Source: Candidatus Saccharibacteria bacterium HGW-Saccharibacteria-1
GTDB taxonomy: Bacteria > Patescibacteriota > Saccharimonadia > Saccharimonadales > Saccharimonadaceae
DNA length: 64,000 nucleotides
Direction: 5' to 3'
Assembly: GCA_002839415.1 (NCBI GenBank)
Contig: PGXZ01000005.1
Location: 1 to 64,000 of the forward strand
The notes under the pieces: generated by a model
What the model saw: the letters and a program-made list of their open reading frames with translations, nothing else
Database searches by the model: none
What the model was told of the DNA's origin: nothing
Position numbers and translations under genes: made by a program
Part shown: positions 1 through 12,951 of the stretch, in pieces
How the letters are laid out: each line of letters opens with the position of its first letter
How positions within the stretch are numbered: position 1 is the first letter of the stretch

Positions 1-19
1 CTGGTATGCCTCGGGGCAT
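1..19 (-). CDS. 5' end of a CDS leaving the window (MPRGIP...)
   Basis: Minus-strand ATG at 19 preceded by a good SD (AAGGAGA, 27-33); only 6 codons visible. Confidence 0.4.
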
Positions 20-81
20 GGTTAATTCTCCTTATTTAGATTTATTATACTGCCTTTTTTGGAATAGACAGTGTGTCTAGT

Positions 82-272
82 ATAAGGGGAGCCTGACAGA
101 CGGTATAGTTTACAAAACTGATAATGGATGCCTGGAAGCGACCAGTAATCTTGTGGGGCTCATTGATTTATTAATCGAAATTAATAAGAATCAAAAAGAA
201 AAACCAACCTCAAAAGATGATGACCCGCGTATGTATTTCATTGACAAAAATGGAATAAAAATATTACTTTAA
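82..272 (+). pseudogene. Possible truncated 3' gene remnant (...DGIVYKTDNGCLEATSNLVGLIDLLIEINKNQKEKPTSKDDDPRMYFIDKNGIKILL*)
   Basis: Open frame with protein-like composition but no ATG and a stop just upstream; located near the possible left edge of the accessory element. Confidence 0.25.
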
Positions 273-292: not shown

Positions 293-850
293 TCAGCTAT
301 TCTTAACCCTCCCCTTAAGTCTTCCCTCGTCTATTAAACTGTTCAATACCTTTCCCGAAAAATTCAAAAACTCTAGTACTTCTGCGGTAGTTAGCTTAGT
401 TTTTCCGACAATAATTAAATCAACATCGAATGCTATTGATACGAGAAGGTTCTCGTTAACGCCCAATTTTTTAGCCCTCGTTATCCGACCTTTATTTGAT
501 TCGTGGGTAAGGTTGTCTCTTAGGTCATGCCTAATGTGATTCCTCATGTTTAAAATCTTCTCATGTAATTCATGGTTCTGCCCACACATAATCACATATC
601 TATCGACAGTATCAAGGTCCTCTAAAAGTAACGACGCCTCATGTAAGCATTCATAGACGTATGCTATGTTTTTTTCTTTTTTAGATGCTTCACTGAATCG
701 TTGCAGGCTTATACTAGAACCCCGTAGATAAGGAATTGCTATACCACTTACCATATATCTCAGAGTCTCCACGCTTCTGTCAGGTTCACCACTCCTTTTG
801 TCTTTGTCCAAGTCGTAGCCTGATTGAGATATTTGTACTCCCTGTGACAT
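293..850 (-). CDS. Hypothetical protein, possible HEPN-like (RNHIRH = RX4H motif)
   Basis: 185-aa ORF with SD (AAGGAG) upstream; helical protein with MRNHIRHD motif. Confidence 0.6.
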   Translation of the reverse strand: MSQGVQISQSGYDLDKDKRSGEPDRSVETLRYMVSGIAIPYLRGSSISLQRFSEASKKEKNIAYVYECLHEASLLLEDLDTVDRYVIMCGQNHELHEKILNMRNHIRHDLRDNLTHESNKGRITRAKKLGVNENLLVSIAFDVDLIIVGKTKLTTAEVLEFLNFSGKVLNSLIDEGRLKGRVKNS

Positions 851-1167
851 AATAACTCCTTATTATTAATTTGAAATTTCAGCATTAAGCTGCTTTAGTG
901 GTATTATTTTAAGTTGTTCAATGAGTCACTTAAACACAGACTCTCGTTAAACTTTTTATCATAAGAACATTATAACTACTTGTCTATAAAATTGATATTT
1001 ATAATATACAAATAACTACAATCAAAAATCCACTACATTCAATTCGGCAGTCACTCAAACTATTTATCATTTTCAATAACCTTGTTATTAGAATAAACAA
1101 ATACTCGATTTAATCCACTGTAGTACTAACGCTCCCCTTTTAGCGACTGGGCTAGTATACTAATAGG

Positions 1168-2436
1168 GTGTCAGACCGAATTGATAATCTTGATGATTAC
1201 ATAGACCTCACTAACCCTGAGATTGACTTAGGTGCGTATAAAATATTTGTTAAATCGTTTGATTGCCAACTAATCGGACCTTCGGGCGAAGTCTACAAGG
1301 GTTTTATTTTAGCAAAAAGCCCCAGCGGACTAGCTTATACCGTAATCGATACTAGCTTTCAATACTCGAATAAAGACAAGCGGTTCCCTGTTCGTTTGAC
1401 TTTTCGCCGAACAAACTCAAAACTTGAAGACAAGCCAATAAACAAAGGAAACCGTTTCCAGCGAATTGCTATGGAAGATGGCGGTGATGGATACAGGGAA
1501 TTTTGGAAAGTTATCGCCTTTCTGATGCAATTCGAAGAAGTTGTCGGTACAGCAAAAATGTTAGACGTCTTTCAACTAGTGAGTAAAGATGCTGTAATCC
1601 GTAGCCTTAAAGATAAAAAAATAAGTGACCAAAAGCAAGAGCTTCTTGATTATATTGAAGAATCAGACGTTACAATCGAGGATATAGTAAACGCATTGGT
1701 TAATAAAACACGAATTTCTGACTTAGAAGAATTTCGAAAACTACTCACGGATGAAAATGATTATATAAATAAATACCGAATAAACCACAGCTCAGAAATA
1801 CCAAGACCAGGCAACGAAGCAGTTTGGAACCATTTCTTGATGAATCATAAATGGATTTTTGGGCTTGGTCTAGATTTACGTTTTATGAACGACTTCGTAG
1901 GAGAGGCGGCAGTCGGTAATCCTGCTACGGATGGCAAGGGCAACCCTCATGTTGATATGCTTGGCTGGACCGACTACACTACACTTGTTGAAATAAAGAC
2001 ACCTGATGCAAAATACTTCACATCTACAAAATCAACAACCGCACGAGCTAATACCTGGAGCTTCACACCTGGCTTTATTGATGGTATTAGCCAAGTATTA
2101 GCACAGAAAGATGACTGGCTCGCAACTCATAATTTCACACCCATAATACATGAAACAAATGGCGTTAAGGAGATATTAAATAATACACTCGTCCGCACGG
2201 TCGACCCAAAAGCTATATTCATTTACGGCAACAAATCAGTTGAGCTACCTCCGTCATCCACCATTTTAGACACCCTAACCAAGCGTGACACCCTTGAGCG
2301 TTATTCTCGCAATAATCGAAACGTCACTATTATCTCTTTTGATGAACTATACACACGTGCCTATCATATTGTGCACGGCAAGTTACCGCCTTTAAACGAA
2401 ACAGCCGCTCAGCCTGACCCTTTTGATGGCTGGTAA
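1168..2436 (+). CDS. sduA: Shedu-type anti-phage defence protein (DUF4263 nuclease domain)
   Basis: GTG start; C-terminal block VWNHFLMNHKWIFGLGL...VDMLGW...TLVEIKTPDAKYF...W matches the Shedu/DUF4263 PD-(D/E)XK-like core. Confidence 0.8.
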   Translation: MSDRIDNLDDYIDLTNPEIDLGAYKIFVKSFDCQLIGPSGEVYKGFILAKSPSGLAYTVIDTSFQYSNKDKRFPVRLTFRRTNSKLEDKPINKGNRFQRIAMEDGGDGYREFWKVIAFLMQFEEVVGTAKMLDVFQLVSKDAVIRSLKDKKISDQKQELLDYIEESDVTIEDIVNALVNKTRISDLEEFRKLLTDENDYINKYRINHSSEIPRPGNEAVWNHFLMNHKWIFGLGLDLRFMNDFVGEAAVGNPATDGKGNPHVDMLGWTDYTTLVEIKTPDAKYFTSTKSTTARANTWSFTPGFIDGISQVLAQKDDWLATHNFTPIIHETNGVKEILNNTLVRTVDPKAIFIYGNKSVELPPSSTILDTLTKRDTLERYSRNNRNVTIISFDELYTRAYHIVHGKLPPLNETAAQPDPFDGW

Positions 2437-2489: not shown

Positions 2490-2717
2490 CTAAAACCCTT
2501 TAAATATCTGCTCCAAAGATACATTTAGCGAATTTGATATCTTAAATAAAGTCGATAACGTAGGCTTACGTCGCCCTTGCTCAATAAAACCCATATGAGT
2601 CCTGTCTATACCACTACTAATAGCAAGCTGTTCTTGAGACATGCTTTTTGACTTACGAGCTTCTATTATTCTTTTACCAATTTCTTTATAAACTTCTTCA
2701 ATCGTTACTACATTCAT
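2490..2717 (-). CDS. XRE-family HTH regulator (R-M controller-like)
   Basis: IGKRIIEARKSKSMSQEQLAISSGIDRTHMGFIEQGRRKPTLSTLFKISNSLNVSLEQIF; internal Met at 2717 preferred because the 2753 start would put operator repeats inside the CDS. Confidence 0.85.
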   Translation of the reverse strand: MNVVTIEEVYKEIGKRIIEARKSKSMSQEQLAISSGIDRTHMGFIEQGRRKPTLSTLFKISNSLNVSLEQIFKGF

Positions 2718-2731
2718 AAATATAGCGTATT

Positions 2732-2804
2732 GATTACATAAGTAAGTAACCACTTACATTTGTAATCATTATAACAATACTATACAATTACTTACATAAG
2801 TAAG
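2732..2804. promoter_or_regulatory. Three operator-like inverted-repeat sites between divergent XRE and DUF4352 genes
   Basis: GATTACATAAGTAAG (2732-2746), CTTACATTTGTAATC (2753-2767), CTTACATAAGTAAG (2791-2804); arms CTTAC/GTAAG with AT-rich 4-nt centre. Confidence 0.65.
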
Positions 2805-2830: not shown

Positions 2831-3403
2831 ATGAAAAATAATAAACAAAACTGGTTCATGAAACACAAAATATTAACCGTAATTGGCATAATCTTTATGA
2901 TAGGAATCATAGGTAGCGCAACTAGTAGCAATAAGACAACTACTTCATCCAGTACAAGCAACAATTCAACCACAAAACAGGATATAAAAGCCAAAGAAGA
3001 AGTCGCTAAAATCGGCACACCTGTTACTGACGGTAAGTTTGAATTCACTGTTAAAAGTATAGAGTGTGGTAAATCTTCAGTCGGAGCGAGCCAGTACCTT
3101 ACTAAAGAGGCTCAAGGTCAATTCTGTCTACTTAATATAAGCGTAAAGAACACAGGCGATGCCGCTCAGAGCCTATTCTCAAGCAATCAGAAGCTATTAA
3201 ATACTCAGAACCAACAATATGCAGCTGATGATACCGCTACAATGTACGCCTCCCCTAATAGCAATGCTTGGTATAGCAATATAAACCCCGGCAACAGTGT
3301 CGAAGGTTCAATAGTATTTGACATACCAAAAGACCAAACGCCAATTACTGCGGAATTACACGATAGTGCGTTTTCGGGTGGAGTTAAAGTTAATTTGCAA
3401 TAA
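2831..3403 (+). CDS. Membrane-anchored DUF4352-domain protein
   Basis: N-terminal TM helix, Ser/Thr linker, then FTVKSIECGK...LLNISVKNTGDAAQ...PGNSVEGSIVFDIPKDQTP typical of DUF4352; SD AAAGGAG. Confidence 0.75.
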   Translation: MKNNKQNWFMKHKILTVIGIIFMIGIIGSATSSNKTTTSSSTSNNSTTKQDIKAKEEVAKIGTPVTDGKFEFTVKSIECGKSSVGASQYLTKEAQGQFCLLNISVKNTGDAAQSLFSSNQKLLNTQNQQYAADDTATMYASPNSNAWYSNINPGNSVEGSIVFDIPKDQTPITAELHDSAFSGGVKVNLQ

Positions 3404-3463: not shown

Positions 3464-4171
3464 ATGTTTGATGAAAATATAGACACTAGCGGCCCCAAAA
3501 GGCTTGTTCTTATGCGTATCATCAATAGACGAGCTCTCGGCTATACTAAAAACCACTTCTCAAAAGACACTCAACTGCCCGTTTATATTACTCCCGAAAC
3601 AGAAGCTGCAATATACGGAATTAACCTCGAAACGATTCAATCATGCTTATTAAGCTTAACCGAGTTAAGCCATATAGAGATAGACCAATATCCAGATAAT
3701 AATCTTCCATTTGAACGAAGAATCAAAAAAGATGATGAGCGTGACTATTATCTTATTAGCGTCAATGAAAGCTTTTTTAATTATTATAAAATTCTAGAAG
3801 CTTCTACCCCATTCTTAAATGCAAGCGATACAACTACACCAATAGAAAAAAATGAAGCTAAAACAATAAACAAGAAGAAAAGAAAAGCTAAAGTTTTTTT
3901 CAATGAAAACACACGGAAATTAACCTACGGAGAAAAAGATATCCTGATAACTGGACCATTACAAATTGAAATATGTAAACAGGTATTTAAATCACGAAAG
4001 ATTTCTGTTTTTTACGATGATATCCTTGAAGTTGTAGATGTTAACAAAAAATCAAGGTCCGTAAAAGACTCCGTAAAACTAATTAATGCCAAAATTAAAG
4101 AAATATTTGGCTTAGACGAACTACTGATATCGAGAGAAGAAGAAGTTAAAATAAGCAAACCATACCTATAA
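3464..4171 (+). CDS. Hypothetical protein, possible replication/DNA-binding protein of the element
   Basis: 235-aa ORF just upstream of a RepA-like ATPase. Confidence 0.5.
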   Translation: MFDENIDTSGPKRLVLMRIINRRALGYTKNHFSKDTQLPVYITPETEAAIYGINLETIQSCLLSLTELSHIEIDQYPDNNLPFERRIKKDDERDYYLISVNESFFNYYKILEASTPFLNASDTTTPIEKNEAKTINKKKRKAKVFFNENTRKLTYGEKDILITGPLQIEICKQVFKSRKISVFYDDILEVVDVNKKSRSVKDSVKLINAKIKEIFGLDELLISREEEVKISKPYL

Positions 4172-4398: not shown

Positions 4399-5391
4399 AT
4401 GGATTTAGAGTATTCAAACGAAAAACTCTCTCTCGTGCCTCAAAGCCTTGAGGTACTAATGGAAAAGAATTTTCCATCCAATCAATGGCTAGTAGATGGC
4501 TTAATACCGTCTCAAGCAATAACAATATTATCAGGAGCTCCAACATCATGTAAGACGTGGATAATGTTAGAAATAGCGACCTGTGTTGCACAAGGTAAGG
4601 ATTTGTTCGACCGCTTTCCCACTAAACAAACCGGGGTTCTGATAATCGACGAGGAGAGTGGTGAACGCCTATTGCAAGATAGGTTTCGCACATTACGCAC
4701 ACTGAAAGATTTGCCAATTTATTGTCTATCAATGTGTGGTCGTAAAATTTCAACTAGCTATGTTGAAGAGATTATAAAATGGTGTCAAGAAAACAAAGTA
4801 AGTTTAATTATGATAGATTCACTAGTAAGAATTCATGACGGTGATGAAAACGCAGCTAGGGATATTGCAAAACTATTTGGCTTAATAAGGAAATTTACAG
4901 TAGCAGACTTGTCTGTCTTAATAGCACACCATAATCGTAAATCTAATAATAGAGACGTTGGTCCACAGCAAATGCGTGGCTCATCAGACATACTAGCTTC
5001 AATCGATTGTCAGATTGCAGTAAACAGACCCCATAGAAACGAACTTCTAACTATGGAACAAACCAAATGTCGAATCGCCCCAGAATTGCCATTATTAGAA
5101 ATAAAGTTCAACCAATACAATGATTATAGCGAGTTTGAATTTCTAGGACAAAAGGATGTGGTCAATAAAAAGCTAGCCTTTAGAAATACATTGTTAGAAA
5201 TAATATCTAGTAATGAAGGCCTAAGCCAGACTGATATATCCAATAGCTTAGAAAAAATAAATCAAAAGAAAAACCCAAAAACAATACGTACCATTCTTGA
5301 AGCTATGGAACTTGAAAATATAATATCTACGTCTCAGGGACCAAAGAATTCAAAATTGTATTCAACAAACAAGAGTTCGGTAAAAAAGTAA
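4399..5391 (+). CDS. RecA-like AAA_25 ATPase (plasmid RepA/replicative helicase-like)
   Basis: Walker A-like GAPTSCKTWIMLEIA, Walker B VSLIMIDSLVRIH, IAHHNRKS, QQMRGSSDILASID. Confidence 0.75.
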   Translation: MDLEYSNEKLSLVPQSLEVLMEKNFPSNQWLVDGLIPSQAITILSGAPTSCKTWIMLEIATCVAQGKDLFDRFPTKQTGVLIIDEESGERLLQDRFRTLRTLKDLPIYCLSMCGRKISTSYVEEIIKWCQENKVSLIMIDSLVRIHDGDENAARDIAKLFGLIRKFTVADLSVLIAHHNRKSNNRDVGPQQMRGSSDILASIDCQIAVNRPHRNELLTMEQTKCRIAPELPLLEIKFNQYNDYSEFEFLGQKDVVNKKLAFRNTLLEIISSNEGLSQTDISNSLEKINQKKNPKTIRTILEAMELENIISTSQGPKNSKLYSTNKSSVKK

Positions 5392-5617: not shown

Positions 5618-7255
5618 ATGAAAGCAGCAATGTATGCACGAGTTAGCACCGAAAGACAAAAAGATGAACAAACAATTGAAACTCAATTAGATGAGGTAAA
5701 AAATGCAGTCGAAAAAGATGGCAATACCCTATCTGACGAAGATATTTATACTGACGATGGCTGGTCTGGGGCTTACCTTCCAAGGCCCTCCCTAGACAAG
5801 CTCAGGCAAGATGCAAAAAACCATAAATTCGATATCTTATATACCTACGACAAAGGTCGAATATCACGTATGTATATTCACCAAGAAATTGTAATTAATG
5901 AATTAAAAGATATAAATATCGAATTTAAAAGCTTACATGACATTAATGGTAAAACTCCCGAAGAACAAGTCATGGGTGGTGTTATGGGTATATTCCATGA
6001 ATACGAAAGAGTTAAAACTTCTGAAAGATTTCGCATCGCTAAATTAAATAAAGTAAAAAATGGCAAATTATTGGGTTACAACCCACCATATGGATATGAT
6101 TACATACCAGTTAGTGGTAATGGTATGTCAAAAAGAAATGGCAAGTTTGTAATTAATAATATTGAAGCAGAAAATGTCAAAAAGATATTTAATTGGGTTG
6201 GTATCGAAGAAATATCACTCAGAGAAGTCATCCGTCGACTTTACGAAGAAGGAATACCACCCAAAAAAGGTAAACGTAATTCTTGGACCAAAGGGCCAGT
6301 AATACGGTTATTGAAAAACGAAACCTATATCGGCGAACATTACTATAATAAAAGTGAATCCTGTATACCTACTAAACCGAGAAAGGATAGAAAGCACTTT
6401 AAACATACAAACAAAACCAGCCGACGTACAAGAGATAGGTCTGAATGGCTAAGCGTTAAAGTAATTCCAATTATAGAGAAAGACCTATTTGATAAAGTCC
6501 AACTTAAACTAAGAGAAAATTTAAAATACGCCAAGCGTAATACAAAACACGAATATCTCTTCGGAGGGCTAACCTATTGTACGTGCGGATGTAAAAGGTC
6601 GTGTGATGGTGCTCGTGGCAATTATTATTATCGTTGCACCGAAAGATTGCAAAGATTCCCCGAGCCATCGCTATGCACCGAACGAGGCATAAATGTTTCA
6701 GCCATGGACGACGCAGCCTGGAATAAGATAGTTACATTACTGACCGAACCTTCTCTTGTAGAACAGCAGCTAGAACGCTATATAAAGGCCCGTAAGGAGG
6801 CTAAGTACACCGAAGACGATACAAGCAGCATATCTAAAGAACTAGCCAATTTATCGGCAGAAGAAAATAGATATGTTGGCGCTTTTGGGCGCGGTAGTAT
6901 AACCGATGAAATGTTCGACAGCCAAATGGCTAATTTGAATAATCGTAAATTAGATTTAAAAAACAAACTTAATAAAATTAAGAATAAAAAATCCCAAAAT
7001 AATTTCGATATAGACACTAGTAGTGTTCAAGAGCAATTCAAATATCTCCTTGATGACCTCAATTTTGAGGATAAGCTTTTTACTGTTCGCAAGATTGTTG
7101 ATAGAATAGTAGCAACGAAGGAAGAAATAACAATATGCGGAAATATACCAATAAATCAAACACTAACCCCAGAAAAGGCAGGATTACATGCTAAGTATAG
7201 GCATCGTCGGCCTACCAAACGTAGGCAAATCAACATTATTCAACGCACTAACTAA
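5618..7255 (+). CDS. Large serine recombinase / site-specific integrase
   Basis: Resolvase N-terminus MKAAMYARVSTERQKDEQTIETQ...YTYDKGRISR, recombinase domain, zinc ribbon (GGLTYCTCGCKRSC...YYYRCTER), coiled coil. Confidence 0.93.
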   Translation: MKAAMYARVSTERQKDEQTIETQLDEVKNAVEKDGNTLSDEDIYTDDGWSGAYLPRPSLDKLRQDAKNHKFDILYTYDKGRISRMYIHQEIVINELKDINIEFKSLHDINGKTPEEQVMGGVMGIFHEYERVKTSERFRIAKLNKVKNGKLLGYNPPYGYDYIPVSGNGMSKRNGKFVINNIEAENVKKIFNWVGIEEISLREVIRRLYEEGIPPKKGKRNSWTKGPVIRLLKNETYIGEHYYNKSESCIPTKPRKDRKHFKHTNKTSRRTRDRSEWLSVKVIPIIEKDLFDKVQLKLRENLKYAKRNTKHEYLFGGLTYCTCGCKRSCDGARGNYYYRCTERLQRFPEPSLCTERGINVSAMDDAAWNKIVTLLTEPSLVEQQLERYIKARKEAKYTEDDTSSISKELANLSAEENRYVGAFGRGSITDEMFDSQMANLNNRKLDLKNKLNKIKNKKSQNNFDIDTSSVQEQFKYLLDDLNFEDKLFTVRKIVDRIVATKEEITICGNIPINQTLTPEKAGLHAKYRHRRPTKRRQINIIQRTN

Positions 7256-8267
7256 TAACGACATTTTGGCGGCTAATTACCCCTTTGCAACTATCGAACC
7301 AAATACTGGTATCGTCCCCGTCCCAGACGAACGGCTTGCAAGGCTTGCCGAGATGTATGGCTCGACCAAGTTATTGCCAGCAACCGTTACTTTTGTCGAC
7401 ATTGCCGGTCTTGTCGCTGGTGCCAGCAAAGGTGAGGGGTTAGGAAATAAGTTTTTATCAAATATCCGGCAATGTGACGCTATCGTTCATATTGTCCGAG
7501 CATTCCACAATGATGATGTCATTCACGTCTCGAACCGAGTCGATCCAGTTGCCGACATGGAAACAATCAACACAGAGCTAATCTTGGCCGACATGCAAAC
7601 AATCGAGACTAGATTACCGAAAATAGCCAAAGAATCGAAAGCTCAACCCAAGTTAATACAAACGGCCGAATACTTAAACCAACTACTTGATCATTTACGA
7701 GCCGGAACTCCGCTATCAAATGTGACTGATTTAGACACAGATATAATTCACGACCTACACCTTTTAACCGCCAAGCCAGTTATCTATGCTTTTAATGTCG
7801 ATGAAGACACATTAACTGATGAAACCATCAAAGCCGAACTATCAAAACTAGTTGCCCCAAACAGAACAATTTTTGTATGCGCCAAATTAGAAGATGAAAT
7901 AAAAAGTCTAACACCCGAAGATTCATCTGAACTACTAGAAAGCTATGGTGTTAAAGAGACTGGACTATTACAGATGATTCACGCCGCCTACGATATATTA
8001 GGTTTGCAAAGTTTTCTTACCGCTGGACCAAAAGAAATTCATGCTTGGACTATCAAAAAAGGTGATACCGCTCCACAAGCCGCCGGAGTAATCCACACTG
8101 ATTTTGAAAAAGGATTTATCGCCGCCCAAATCGTTGATTACGATGATCTAATTGCCGCTGGTTCAGAGGCAGCCGCTAAAAGCGCCGGCAAAATGCGCAC
8201 CGAGGGCAAAGATTACGTCATGCGACCGGGTGATATAGTTGAATTCAGATTTAACGTCAGCAAGTAA
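7188..8267 (+). CDS. ychF: Redox-regulated ATPase / GTP-binding protein YchF
   Basis: MLSIGIVGLPNVGKSTLFNALTN...; TGS domain and C-terminal DYVMRPGDIVEFRFN. Confidence 0.97.
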   Translation: MLSIGIVGLPNVGKSTLFNALTNNDILAANYPFATIEPNTGIVPVPDERLARLAEMYGSTKLLPATVTFVDIAGLVAGASKGEGLGNKFLSNIRQCDAIVHIVRAFHNDDVIHVSNRVDPVADMETINTELILADMQTIETRLPKIAKESKAQPKLIQTAEYLNQLLDHLRAGTPLSNVTDLDTDIIHDLHLLTAKPVIYAFNVDEDTLTDETIKAELSKLVAPNRTIFVCAKLEDEIKSLTPEDSSELLESYGVKETGLLQMIHAAYDILGLQSFLTAGPKEIHAWTIKKGDTAPQAAGVIHTDFEKGFIAAQIVDYDDLIAAGSEAAAKSAGKMRTEGKDYVMRPGDIVEFRFNVSK

Positions 8268-8993
8268 CTATTTTTTAAGCGGTTGGAGTAAATAAAATCG
8301 TTCTTGATTGCCTTTTGCACCAGCCACGTCACTATCGCGCTTGTTTTTGACTACGAAATAATCACGCGACCAATCTTCAAAATCTTTCAAAATCTGGCGC
8401 CGTATGGCGTCATTTTTAATAATGCCCTTATTGGTCTGGTTTTTTCCAGCCTCAAATTGCGGTTTTACCATCGCAACAACTTGCGTATTTTCATCTGATA
8501 AATAATTATATAAATGTGGCAAAATCTCGCGTAAACTAATAAAAGACACATCGATTACGACAATATTAGGGATATCTTTGCAATAAAAGTCACGAATATC
8601 AGTCTTTTCATGTAATTCAATCCGCCTGTTTCGACGCAAACTCGGATGCAACTGATTAGTCCCAACGTCGACTGCATAAACTTTTTCTGCACCATTTCTG
8701 AGTGCATAATCAGTAAAACCACCAGTACTACTGCCAACATCGAGGACTATTTTACCCTTAAAATCTAAACCCAATATATCAGATACAGATTCTAATTTTA
8801 AACCAGCCCGACTAACATATTGATTTTCAGCCGCTAGATTAATCTCGGCATTAGAGGCAACAAAATGACCAGGTTTAGTAATAACCTGGCCATTAACTGT
8901 TACTTTGCCCATTTTAATCCAGCTCTCGGACTGAGAACGACTTGCGGTCAATTTGCGCTGAGTTAGCGCCATATCAAGCCGTTGTTTTGTCAT
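8268..8993 (-). CDS. tlyA: TlyA family rRNA 2'-O-methyltransferase/hemolysin-like
   Basis: S4 domain MTKQRLDMALTQRKLTASRSQSESWIKMGKVTVNG + KIVLDVGSSTGGFTDYAL...DVSFISLR. Confidence 0.93.
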   Translation of the reverse strand: MTKQRLDMALTQRKLTASRSQSESWIKMGKVTVNGQVITKPGHFVASNAEINLAAENQYVSRAGLKLESVSDILGLDFKGKIVLDVGSSTGGFTDYALRNGAEKVYAVDVGTNQLHPSLRRNRRIELHEKTDIRDFYCKDIPNIVVIDVSFISLREILPHLYNYLSDENTQVVAMVKPQFEAGKNQTNKGIIKNDAIRRQILKDFEDWSRDYFVVKNKRDSDVAGAKGNQERFYLLQPLKK

Positions 8994-9003
8994 CTTAGCC
9001 TGA

Positions 9004-9570
9004 TTAAGCCTTTTTGCGCTCGCGATAATCGCCAGTTGTAGTATCAACTGAAATCACATCGCCAGTCTTGATAAACGCTGGAACCTTTACGACTATACCA
9101 GTCTCCAAAGTCGCATCCTTTAGAACGTTACTACTGGTGTCGCCCTTAACAACATCTTCGGCATAAGTCACCTCAAGATATACGTTTTTAGGAAGTTCAA
9201 CATTTATAATATTGTCGTTAAACGATTGTAAAGTCAGACTATCGCCCTCTTTCAAATAACCAGCAGCGTCCTCAACGATATCGGCCGATAATTGAAATTG
9301 TTCAAAAGTTTCAGGATCCATAAAATGGAAATCCGTTCCATCTGTATACAAATATTGAACAGTTCGGCTGGTAACTTCAGCTGAATCAATTTTTTCTTGA
9401 CCCTTGAAAGTTTTAGGGATAACACTGCCATCAATCAAGTTTTTAATCTTGACGTTAACAATGCTACCACCGCGGCCAACAACTTTTTGGTTATATTCGA
9501 CTACTTTAAAAGGCTTGCCGTCCAGTTGCAGCACAACACCTTTTTTTAGTTCAGTTGGTGAATAAGCCAT
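9004..9570 (-). CDS. efp: Elongation factor P
   Basis: KGVVLQLDGKPFKVVEYNQKVVGRGGSIVNVKIKNLIDGSVIPKTFKGQEKID. Confidence 0.97.
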   Translation of the reverse strand: MAYSPTELKKGVVLQLDGKPFKVVEYNQKVVGRGGSIVNVKIKNLIDGSVIPKTFKGQEKIDSAEVTSRTVQYLYTDGTDFHFMDPETFEQFQLSADIVEDAAGYLKEGDSLTLQSFNDNIINVELPKNVYLEVTYAEDVVKGDTSSNVLKDATLETGIVVKVPAFIKTGDVISVDTTTGDYRERKKA

Positions 9571-9573
9571 CTT

Positions 9574-9777
9574 CTAACCCTGAGTAACGAATGGTAATAG
9601 TGCTAGGTGTCGAGCACGCTTAATAGCAACTGCTAGCTGGCGTTGTTGCTTTGCGCTTAGACCAGTTTTACCAATTTGCTTAATTTGACCATAAATGTCG
9701 ATAAATCGTTGCAAAGTTTTTACATCTTTGTAGTCAAAATATACTGGTGTATCTTTTTTAAATCTTTTAATTGCCAT
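9574..9777 (-). CDS. rpsR: 30S ribosomal protein S18
   Basis: [50 protein letters not shown]; start moved to MAIKRF. Confidence 0.96.
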
Positions 9778-9797
9778 AATAATATTCTCCAATATCC

Positions 9798-10253
9798 CTA
9801 AAAAGGAATTTCACTTAAATCAATAGGTTTGTCATCGACGTCTTCAATTACGACGTCGCCACTTTTCTTCGACTGGCTACTGCCACCACCTTGTTCAAAG
9901 TCGCCATCATCGCTACGTCCACCGCCAACGAAGTTAAAGTCTTCGACAATAACATCAACAGCTGAGCGTTTTTGACCTGAATCTTTGTCATCCCAAGTTC
10001 GTTGCTCGAGGCGTCCGCTTACTAGAACTGGACTGCCCTTTGACAAATACTGCGCGATAACTTCGCCAGTTTTTGCCCAAGCTACACAGTTAATATAACT
10101 AACTTGGTCTTGTTTGGTGCCGTCAGCACCCTTCCAACTTCGGCTTACTGCGAGACTAAAATTAGTAACGCTTTGCCCACCGGACGTGGAACGAGTTTCG
10201 GGATCACGTGTTAGGTTTCCCATCAAAATAACTTTGTTAAATCCCTTAGCCAT
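9798..10253 (-). CDS. ssb: Single-stranded DNA-binding protein
   Basis: [35 protein letters not shown]; acidic tail ending DLSEIPF. Confidence 0.96.
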
Positions 10254-10256
10254 TGT

Positions 10257-10607
10257 CTACTCCTCTTCTTTTACATCATTTTCAGATGCGTTTGCTTTTG
10301 CTTCCTCTAGAGCTGCTCGGCCCTTTTCGTCAACGGTTACAAGTAGATAACGCAATACTTCGTCAGTAATGTTCAATGTATTGCTAATCTTCAAAAGTGC
10401 GTCAGCTGGTAATTTTACATCAAAGTAAACATAAACAGCGAAGTCTTCTTTTTTAATGCGGTAAGCAAGTTTTTTCTTGCCCCAGACATCTTCTTTGATA
10501 ATGCTACCGCCATGAGTCGTAACTAGACTGCGCACCTTTGCAAGTGGCGTCTCTAGGTCAGTCTCTAGGTCGGGGTGAATCAGAACGGTTAGTTCATATT
10601 CTTTCAT
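10257..10607 (-). CDS. rpsF: 30S ribosomal protein S6
   Basis: YELTVLIHPDLE...GKKKLAYRIKKEDFAVYVYFDV. Confidence 0.95.
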   Translation of the reverse strand: MKEYELTVLIHPDLETDLETPLAKVRSLVTTHGGSIIKEDVWGKKKLAYRIKKEDFAVYVYFDVKLPADALLKISNTLNITDEVLRYLLVTVDEKGRAALEEAKANASENDVKEEE

Positions 10608-10701
10608 ATAGATTTCCTCCTCTGGAATCCTTATGGATGCTTATATCTGGTATAAGCCGAGTTAATAACAGACTAATTATAACAGTTATCTGTGGATAAA
10701 T

Positions 10702-12951
10702 CTAGAGCTTATCTTCCAGGCCAAGTTCGTCCATACTCGAAATTAACACCTCACGTGGCCGTGCGCCATCAGCTGGTCCGATCAGCCCCTGATCTTCCAT
10801 AGTTTCAATTAGTCGAGCTGCGCGAGCATAACCAACCCTCAGCCGTCGCTGCAACAAGCTAGCGCTGGCTTTGCCGCTATCAATCACAACCCTAACGGCG
10901 TCCTTGTACATATCATCTTCATTGTCACTACCAGTGCTAAAGTCCATTACTACCCCGCCCTTGCCATTCAATTGAACTGGCTGGCTAACGACCTCGTTGT
11001 TATATTGCGGCGGCGATTGCATCTGCAAATGATTAGTAATTTTCGTAACTTCCTGATCAGTTACCCAAGCACCTTGAATACGCTTTGGCTTACTCATACT
11101 TGGCGTCAACAGCAGCATATCACCTTGTCCAAGCAGTTTCTCTGCCCCAATCTGGTCAAGGATAGTACGACTATCCACCTGAGATGCCACCGTAAAGGCA
11201 ATCCTGGCAGGTATATTAGCCTTAATTAGGCCGGTAATGACATCAACTGATGGACGCTGTGTCGCTAAAACCAGGTGAATACCAACTGCCCTGGCTTTTT
11301 GAGCCAGACGTACAATCAAAGCCTCGACATCACGGGCGGCAATCATCATCAAATCAGCCAACTCGTCAATTACAATCACAATGTATGGCATAGCGCCATT
11401 TTCATGCTCTTGTGGAATGCCATCTTCGTCCGAAACGGTAATTTTTTTACTGCCCGAGGTAATCATTTGATTATAAGTTTTAATATCCTTAACTTTATGA
11501 CTAGCTAGTAAGGTATAACGTCGCTCCATCTCGTTAACAGCCCATTTTAGGGCACTAATAGTCTTGTCAGGTTCAGCAATCACTGGCGTCAACAGATGCG
11601 GAATATCAGCATAAGCCGCCATTTCGACTTGCTTTGGGTCAACCAAAATCAATTTCATTTCGCTTGGACTATTGCGATACAGTAGTGATGTCAATAATGT
11701 ATTGATCATAACTGACTTACCTGAACCAGTTTGACCAGCGATCAACAGGTGGGGCATTTTGTTTAGCTCGCCAACCACGGCTTCACCAGATATATCTTTA
11801 CCAATTGCAAAGGATAGTGGCTCATGGGTGTCTTTCCATTGTCGACTAGTTAAAATCGAGTGCAAGCGTACATCAGCCGCTTTGCGGTTAGGAACCTCAA
11901 TACCAACCGCCTTTTGGCCAGGAATTGGCGCTTCGATACGCAAGCTTTGGGCCGCCAAATTGAGAGCAATGTTAGTTTCAAGGGCTGTAATTCGGGTCAA
12001 TTTAACACCGCTAGGAGGTTTAAGTGTATATTGCGTGACCTTAGGCCCAATATTTGCCCCTTCCATCTCGACATCAATATTAAATTCACCCAATGTATCT
12101 TTGATAATCAAAGCATTTTGTTGAACATCGCCAGCATCGGCCGGAGACTGCTTCTTTTCCAACAAATCAACACTTGGCGCCTCCCAATTAGGGTCGCTAA
12201 TTGTAACAAGCGCCGCCTTATCCTCGGCAACCTTATCACGCGTTACGCTACCCTTTAGGCTCGATAGTTTGGCTTGTTTTTTGTCTTTGGCTGCAACTTC
12301 ATTAGCATCGAGTGTTGGCACGCCAGCGTTCATCTTGAAATTACCAATCATAGTTGTTTTAGGGCCATCAATCGCGGCTGCGTTGCGCATAACTTTAACG
12401 TTAGCCTCTTGCTCTTCTGATTCATGGCGACCAAGCTGCAAAATCTTTTCAAAAACCGTAAAAGGTGAAATCTTAAAGATAAACAAACCAGTAATAACAA
12501 TTAACAATACGTAAATAAAGGCCGCGACAGTGGTGTTAACCAGTGCCAACACGCCGCTATTGACCAAATCGCCAACAAAACCGCCAGTTGATTTGCCTGT
12601 CTTGTCCTTAAGTAGTCCAAACAGGGCTGAAAACCAAATTATCTCTGATATCGAAGCTAATTTAATAACAAACGGGATGCGATTGTCTTCGGACCGAAAA
12701 ATCTCAACCGCTATATATACCGAAATAATCGGTACAACATAGAACGCATAGCCCACGCTCAGCAGCATTGACTGTTGCACCCACTCGAGCACTGGACCAC
12801 CGGCGCCAAACCAAGCCACTACAAACAGAATCGAAATAGCTATCAAAAAGACAGCGCCAACCTGAGTCCAAAAACCACTCGGCAAGCTATGCTGCGGAGT
12901 TGATTTTATTGGAGTTTTTTTTCGGGATGATCGTTTTTTCTTTTTTGGCAT
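10702..12951 (-). CDS. ftsK: DNA translocase FtsK/SpoIIIE
   Basis: N-terminal TM helices, Walker A HLLIAGQTGSGKSVMINTLL, C-terminal winged-helix gamma domain. Confidence 0.95.
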   Translation of the reverse strand: MPKKKKRSSRKKTPIKSTPQHSLPSGFWTQVGAVFLIAISILFVVAWFGAGGPVLEWVQQSMLLSVGYAFYVVPIISVYIAVEIFRSEDNRIPFVIKLASISEIIWFSALFGLLKDKTGKSTGGFVGDLVNSGVLALVNTTVAAFIYVLLIVITGLFIFKISPFTVFEKILQLGRHESEEQEANVKVMRNAAAIDGPKTTMIGNFKMNAGVPTLDANEVAAKDKKQAKLSSLKGSVTRDKVAEDKAALVTISDPNWEAPSVDLLEKKQSPADAGDVQQNALIIKDTLGEFNIDVEMEGANIGPKVTQYTLKPPSGVKLTRITALETNIALNLAAQSLRIEAPIPGQKAVGIEVPNRKAADVRLHSILTSRQWKDTHEPLSFAIGKDISGEAVVGELNKMPHLLIAGQTGSGKSVMINTLLTSLLYRNSPSEMKLILVDPKQVEMAAYADIPHLLTPVIAEPDKTISALKWAVNEMERRYTLLASHKVKDIKTYNQMITSGSKKITVSDEDGIPQEHENGAMPYIVIVIDELADLMMIAARDVEALIVRLAQKARAVGIHLVLATQRPSVDVITGLIKANIPARIAFTVASQVDSRTILDQIGAEKLLGQGDMLLLTPSMSKPKRIQGAWVTDQEVTKITNHLQMQSPPQYNNEVVSQPVQLNGKGGVVMDFSTGSDNEDDMYKDAVRVVIDSGKASASLLQRRLRVGYARAARLIETMEDQGLIGPADGARPREVLISSMDELGLEDKL

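What the first reader, a model, noticed from the sequence alone, without database searches (positions are those of the whole stretch)
1168..2436. Shedu-type (DUF4263) defence nuclease on an integrative element in a CPR-like genome
The 422-aa protein has a C-terminal block (VWNHFLMNHKWIFGLGL...HVDMLGWTDYTTLVEIKTPD) matching the Shedu PD-(D/E)XK-like nuclease core, preceded by a ~200-aa sensor-like N-terminus. Shedu is an established single-gene anti-phage system. It is carried here next to an integrase, in what looks like a reduced Patescibacteria genome where mobile defence cargo is poorly described. Its N-terminal region may define a lineage-specific subtype.
Basis: partly seen in the sequence, partly recalled or inferred. 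Interest (0 to 1): 0.7.

Follow-up and report, generated by a model that had tools for sequence, protein, structure and literature searches.

The report
Shedu nuclease on a ychF-targeting island
The gene is a genuine, intact-looking Shedu anti-phage nuclease, a known type of bacterial defence, carried by a mobile element that inserts itself into the start of the host gene ychF in a small-genome bacterium and that seems to carry a second defence system as well.

Summary
Window 1168-2436 (+) encodes a 422-aa SduA: Pfam SduA_C E=1.4e-16, PADLOC SduA E=2e-57, and PDB Shedu structures match by profile (1.6e-37). D263, E275-x-K277 and Q309 are conserved. The gene lies on a serine-recombinase element whose integrase gene runs 68 bp into ychF. 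I found the other junction on contig C18 of the same genome: a ychF start cut after about 23 bases, beside its usual upstream neighbour. The C18 side carries a CBASS-like cyclase and a 1TM effector. The middle of the element is unassembled because IS copies break the contigs. The same ychF site is used in relatives: a complete 9.4-kb element in G237, and a 95%-identical core in two genera whose adjacent ychF genes are 72% identical. The N-terminal domain (residues 10-128) matches no Pfam, PDB or fold entry. It is not lineage-specific: Aminicenantes and Roizmanbacteria carry it, attached to three separate nuclease branches, which points to domain shuffling. Nine of 24 related Shedu genes abut or overlap restriction-modification genes; the window copy does not. 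Verdict: a new member of a known kind on an informative element; biochemical function is inferred.

The parts
1..98 (.). Terminal ~98 bases of a multi-copy insertion sequence; contig edge
   Evidence: Same 98 bp at 9 contig ends of the own genome, flanks diverging after TGACA
293..850 (-). 185-aa hypothetical protein, element cargo
   Evidence: No Pfam, PADLOC or NCBIfam family over threshold
1156..1161 (+). TATACT, -10-like box 6 nt before the GTG start; transcript probably leaderless
   Evidence: Read from sequence; inference
1168..2436 (+). sduA, Shedu nuclease, 422 aa
   Evidence: PF14082 1.4e-16; PADLOC SduA 2e-57; PDB 8ti8/8ps4
1195..1551 (+). N-terminal beta-rich domain, residues 10-128 (putative sensor/clamp)
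   Evidence: 42-53% identical across Saccharibacteria, Aminicenantes, Roizmanbacteria; 6 strands + helix, pLDDT 67.5; no Pfam/PDB match
1552..1809 (+). Helical middle segment, residues 129-214
   Evidence: 12-32% identity to relatives; helices in model (low confidence)
1810..2382 (+). PD-(D/E)XK nuclease domain, residues 215-405; D263 (1954-1956), E275 (1990-1992), K277 (1996-1998), Q309 (2092-2094)
   Evidence: Invariant in the six-sequence alignment; E275 matches the residue that is A in the 8ti9/8tia chains
2490..2753 (-). HTH_3 regulator, 87 aa
   Evidence: PF01381 2.8e-12
2831..3403 (+). DUF4352 membrane-anchored/exported protein
   Evidence: PF11611 3e-30
3464..4171 (+). 235-aa protein; relatives of similar size precede AAA_25 in other ychF elements
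   Evidence: Position; no family
4399..5391 (+). AAA_25 (RecA-like) ATPase, part of the element core
   Evidence: PF13481 2.2e-27; similar 322-330-aa ATPases next to the LSR in G124, G339, G439, G488, G305
5618..7255 (+). Large serine recombinase; 3' end overlaps ychF by 68 bp
   Evidence: PF00239 2.5e-26, PF07508 1.6e-19; CcrB model 3.3e-30, below its cut-off
7188..7210 (+). attR: element-side ychF start ATGCTAAGTATAGGCATCGT joined to host ychF
   Evidence: Counterpart attL at G000:C18:2450
7188..8267 (+). ychF, host GTPase, target gene, reading frame kept
   Evidence: PF06071 1e-37; 76-81% identical to genus relatives

Best explanation
The gene encodes a Shedu-type anti-phage nuclease. Its C-terminal PD-(D/E)XK domain would cut phage DNA (metal-dependent, D263/E275/K277) and its N-terminal domain would gate or aim the nuclease, as in the solved Shedu proteins. 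It is cargo of an integrative element resembling staphylococcal cassettes in layout: a serine recombinase plus AAA ATPase core that inserts within about codons 6-8 of ychF and supplies a replacement start, so ychF stays in frame but is now read behind the integrase gene. The other side of the element carries a CBASS-like cyclase with a transmembrane effector, so the element is a mobile defence package. Shown: family membership, conserved catalytic residues, both attachment junctions, target-site use in relatives, and cargo genes. Inferred: nuclease activity, phage protection, DNA-end sensing, and that C18 and C15 are the two ends of one element.
For: Family. Catalytic residues; the 8ti9/8tia chains carry A at the position of E275, consistent with deposited catalytic mutants. 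Junctions: LSR overlaps ychF; attL ATGAGTTTATCAATCGGTATAGT|GAAATC on C18 next to the TPR gene that precedes ychF in relatives. Only one ychF copy in the genome. Complete 9.4-kb element with the same kind of attL/attR in G237. G390 has an empty ychF contig end and an occupied one sharing exactly 99 bases, as expected of an assembly bubble in a mixed population. Elements in G124 and G339 are 95.4% identical over 4620 bp while adjacent ychF is 72% identical. C18 cargo: SMODS/AGS_C cyclase and 1TM effector.
Against: No experiment. The full-length model was poor (pLDDT 50), so the fold of this very protein was not confirmed; Foldseek ranked 8ti8 only 4th with a non-significant score. The C18-C15 link is inferred from attL/attR logic; IS copies interrupt the assembly and other contigs could lie between. 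Identity to characterised Shedu proteins is low (single-sequence phmmer E=1.5e-4).
Confidence: 0.8

Rival explanations
1. It works like E. coli Shedu specifically: the N-terminal domain is a DNA-end clamp and the protein nicks at a fixed distance from linear ends.
For: End sensing reported for EcSduA (PMC12904381 citing Loeff 2025); homology to 8ps4 in the nuclease part; related Shedu genes abut RM genes that would make DNA ends.
Against: The N-domain has no detectable sequence or fold match to any solved Shedu N-terminus, and N-termini differ between Shedu subtypes.
Confidence: 0.4
2. A Shedu nuclease used by the element against competing plasmids or elements rather than against phages.
For: Encoded on a mobile element at a recurrently used site; elements with different cargo use the same site.
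Against: Characterised Shedu proteins defend against phages (PMC12137116); co-carried CBASS is anti-phage by family.
Confidence: 0.2
3. A decaying or inactive remnant left on an IS-disrupted island.
For: The element is interrupted by IS copies; a relative in G684 appears frame-shifted in its N-terminus.
Against: Open full-length frame with all catalytic residues and conserved N-domain motifs; recognisable -10-like box.
Confidence: 0.08

Closest known systems
BcSduA, Bacillus cereus Shedu (PDB 8ti8)
   Same: Helical middle plus PD-(D/E)XK nuclease, EIKTP motif, C-terminal TFDEL-like motif aligned
   Different: N-terminal ~130 residues do not align; low overall identity
EcSduA, E. coli Shedu (taken here to be PDB 8ps4), DNA-end sensing
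   Same: Nuclease domain homologous (1.7e-9)
   Different: More distant; no N-terminal match, so end sensing cannot be transferred by homology. That 8ps4 is the E. coli protein is from memory
VcSduA, type I-D Shedu on VSP-II (PMC12137116)
   Same: Single-gene Shedu carried on a genomic island with other defence genes
   Different: Has a GHKL ATPase N-terminus; here the N-domain is a small beta domain
Staphylococcal cassette chromosome (CcrB recombinase)
   Same: Ccr-like serine recombinase beside an ATPase, site-specific insertion in a conserved gene, defence/accessory cargo
   Different: Score 105 vs cut-off 900; target is the 5' end of ychF; ATPase is AAA_25
Pneumococcal prophage upstream of ychF (PMC8637289, citing Chen 2019)
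   Same: Integrase gene immediately upstream of ychF, reported to switch its expression
   Different: A prophage at a site beside ychF; here a serine recombinase inside the first codons

Membership tests
Shedu (SduA) | SduA_C / DUF4263 domain over the curated cut-off | tested here: met
   61.5 bits vs 27; PADLOC SduA 2e-57
Shedu (SduA) | PD-(D/E)XK catalytic residues | tested here: met
   D263, E275, K277, Q309 invariant in six sequences; align with 8ti8
Shedu (SduA) | Single-gene system with an N-terminal regulatory domain | tested here: met
   Stand-alone ORF; separate 10-128 domain; that the domain regulates is not shown
Shedu (SduA) | Protects against phages, nuclease-dependent | not testable with these tools
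   Needs expression and phage challenge
A characterised Shedu N-terminal subtype | N-domain related to a solved or catalogued one | tested here: inconclusive
   No PDB, Pfam or fold match, but PADLOC PDLC00391 aligns from residue 69; the Shedu subtype paper (Gu 2025) could not be read
SCC element | CcrA/B/C recombinase over the NCBIfam cut-off | tested here: not met
   105 bits vs 900
CBASS (on C18) | CD-NTase plus effector side by side | tested here: met
   SMODS 6.8e-8, AGS_C 5.7e-7, PADLOC cyclase 7.5e-21; adjacent 1TM effector 1e-12

The most novel reading that the evidence does not exclude
In Patescibacteria, Shedu nucleases carry interchangeable N-terminal specificity domains and often act as an extra subunit of restriction-modification operons, finishing off DNA that the restriction enzyme has opened, while ychF-site recombinase elements move Shedu and CBASS between genera of ultrasmall bacteria.
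Probability: 0.2. Interest if true: 0.65.

Novelty: new member of a known kind. Interest (0 to 1): 0.42.

Why it matters
Shedu itself is known, so one more member is modest news. What adds value is the setting: a defence-carrying element at a recurrent ychF site in ultrasmall, probably episymbiotic bacteria, with evidence of recent movement between genera; a domain that has moved between nuclease lineages, which makes the idea of swappable sensors testable; and a strong tendency of Patescibacterial Shedu genes to lie next to restriction-modification genes, which suggests a partner for an end-sensing nuclease. Only one paper in the held library names both Shedu and Patescibacteria, and not as a finding about them.

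Tried and rejected
Lineage-specific N-terminal subtype: rejected. Phage or viral carriage of this Shedu: no match in 50,697 phage records or in two viral-contig scans. N-domain fold identification: two models and two PDB fold searches gave nothing significant; OB-like hits of the first search were not reproduced with the better N-domain model. N-domain fused to other effectors: the G344 hit lies in a low-complexity surface-like protein and was dropped; the phylum-wide N-domain search found only the window, a weak G175 match and a marginal G361 match. Pairing contigs across IS copies by target-site duplications failed. IetAS and a type IIG enzyme on C7 are IS-bounded too, but I did not assign them to the element.

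Full report
Observation. The ORF at 1168-2436 (+) is 422 aa with a GTG start. It carries SduA_C/DUF4263 at residues 217-395 (61.5 bits, cut-off 27, E=1.4e-16) and matches 14 PADLOC SduA models (best 2e-57). It is the only SduA_C match in its 1.10-Mb genome, and none of the 14 control genomes has one. A single-sequence search reaches the solved Shedu 8ti8 at 1.5e-4; a profile of six relatives reaches 8ti8 at 1.6e-37 and 8ps4 at 1.7e-9. D263, E275, K277 and Q309 are invariant in the alignment. The chains of 8ti9/8tia read A where the window has E275, consistent with deposited catalytic mutants.

Architecture. Residues 10-128 form a beta-rich domain with a final helix (model pLDDT 67.5). Residues 129-214 are helical and poorly conserved, and 215-405 are the nuclease. 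The N-domain has no Pfam, PDB-sequence or PDB-fold match. The full-length model is weak (pLDDT 50), and its best Shedu match, 8ti8, was not significant, so identity rests on sequence profiles.

Domain shuffling. The N-domain is 42-53% identical among the window, a Saccharibacteria MAG (L036), an Aminicenantes MAG (L037) and a Roizmanbacteria MAG (L038), although the nuclease domains of the distant pairs are only 24-28% identical. Conversely, L050 shares 39% in the nuclease but 22% in the N-domain. On a nuclease tree of 24 proteins, well-supported branches force at least three changes of the N-domain label, and its carriers sit on three separate branches. In the class-wide search 21 of 393 genomes hold a Shedu protein; of these only the window and G684 (apparently frame-shifted) match in the N-domain. 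The N-domain is therefore a shared, mobile module, not a lineage-specific subtype. PADLOC model PDLC00391 aligns from residue 69, so a distant relation to a catalogued N-terminus is possible.

The element. A large serine recombinase (5618-7255) runs 68 bp into ychF (7188-8267) in another frame. Most genus relatives have ychF directly behind its own promoter-like sequence. In this genome the missing left junction is on contig C18: ATGAGTTTATCAATCGGTATAGT then unrelated sequence, preceded by the TPR gene that precedes ychF in relatives; there is no second intact ychF. The right junction reads ATGCTAAGTATAGGCATCGT then host ychF. Integration thus replaces about the first seven codons and keeps the frame, while the original promoter stays at the left end. 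That ychF is then expressed from the integrase transcript is inference; a pneumococcal prophage is reported to act on ychF in a comparable position (PMC8637289).

Mobility. G237 has a complete element of about 9.4 kb with matching junctions, carrying an AAA_13 ATPase of PADLOC candidate family PDC-S06. G390 shows an empty ychF contig end and an occupied one that share exactly 99 bases, which fits a mixed population or excision. G124 and G339, of different genera, hold 95.4% identical 4.6-kb cores while their ychF genes are 72% identical: recent transfer. LSR relatives were found in 9 of 199 family genomes, and in all nine the LSR lies beside ychF. The C18 side of our element holds a SMODS/AGS_C cyclase with a 1TM effector and a PIN protein. 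Because the window begins with an IS end present at nine contig ends, the middle of the element is unresolved; joining C18 and C15 is inference from the two att sites.

RM association. In 9 of 24 Shedu loci with context (the window included), the Shedu gene lies next to or overlaps type I or III RM genes on the same strand (L037, L038, L051, L137, L145, L146, L147, L149, L155). With the same queries, none of 30 ychF loci shows RM genes; those have shorter flanks but would reveal abutting genes. The window copy has no RM neighbour on its contig side. An end-sensing nuclease (PMC12904381) next to an enzyme that makes ends is an attractive but untested pairing.

Assessment. This is a Shedu family member (tests met except function), on a ychF-site element that resembles SCC in layout but fails the Ccr cut-offs. 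Anti-phage activity is likely by family but not shown. Novelty of the gene is low; the element, the shuffled N-domain and the RM linkage give it moderate interest.

Noticed in passing
L037:568-7548; L038:1-8611; L051:4862-10002; L137, L145, L146, L147, L149, L155: Shedu genes of Patescibacteria and Aminicenantes frequently abut or overlap type I/III restriction-modification genes (9 of 24 loci); in L037 and L038 a RhuM-family gene is also in the cluster.
   Followed up: partly
window 1-98; ends of contigs C3, C6, C8, C14, C16, C27, C29, C30 of the own genome: Four classes of IS ends, each at five to nine contig edges, break this assembly: many IS copies for a 1.1-Mb genome.
   Followed up: partly
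L083 (G000:C18):2473-7216: CBASS-like cyclase, 1TM effector and PIN protein behind the attL junction in ychF.
   Followed up: yes
L103 (G000:C7 end): IetAS-like AAA/subtilase pair and a type IIG restriction enzyme on another IS-bounded contig; linkage to the element unknown.
   Followed up: no
L053:4583-9200 and L054 (reverse strand) about 7900-12520: 95.4% identical ychF-site element cores in two genera whose adjacent ychF is 72% identical: recent transfer.
   Followed up: yes
L013:400-620: Two ychF-start-like sequences in tandem behind an LSR 3' end, as if two elements had inserted one after another.
   Followed up: no
window 1156-1170: A TATACT box lies six bases before the GTG of sduA, and similar boxes lie just before ychF ATGs in relatives, suggesting leaderless transcripts.
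   Followed up: no
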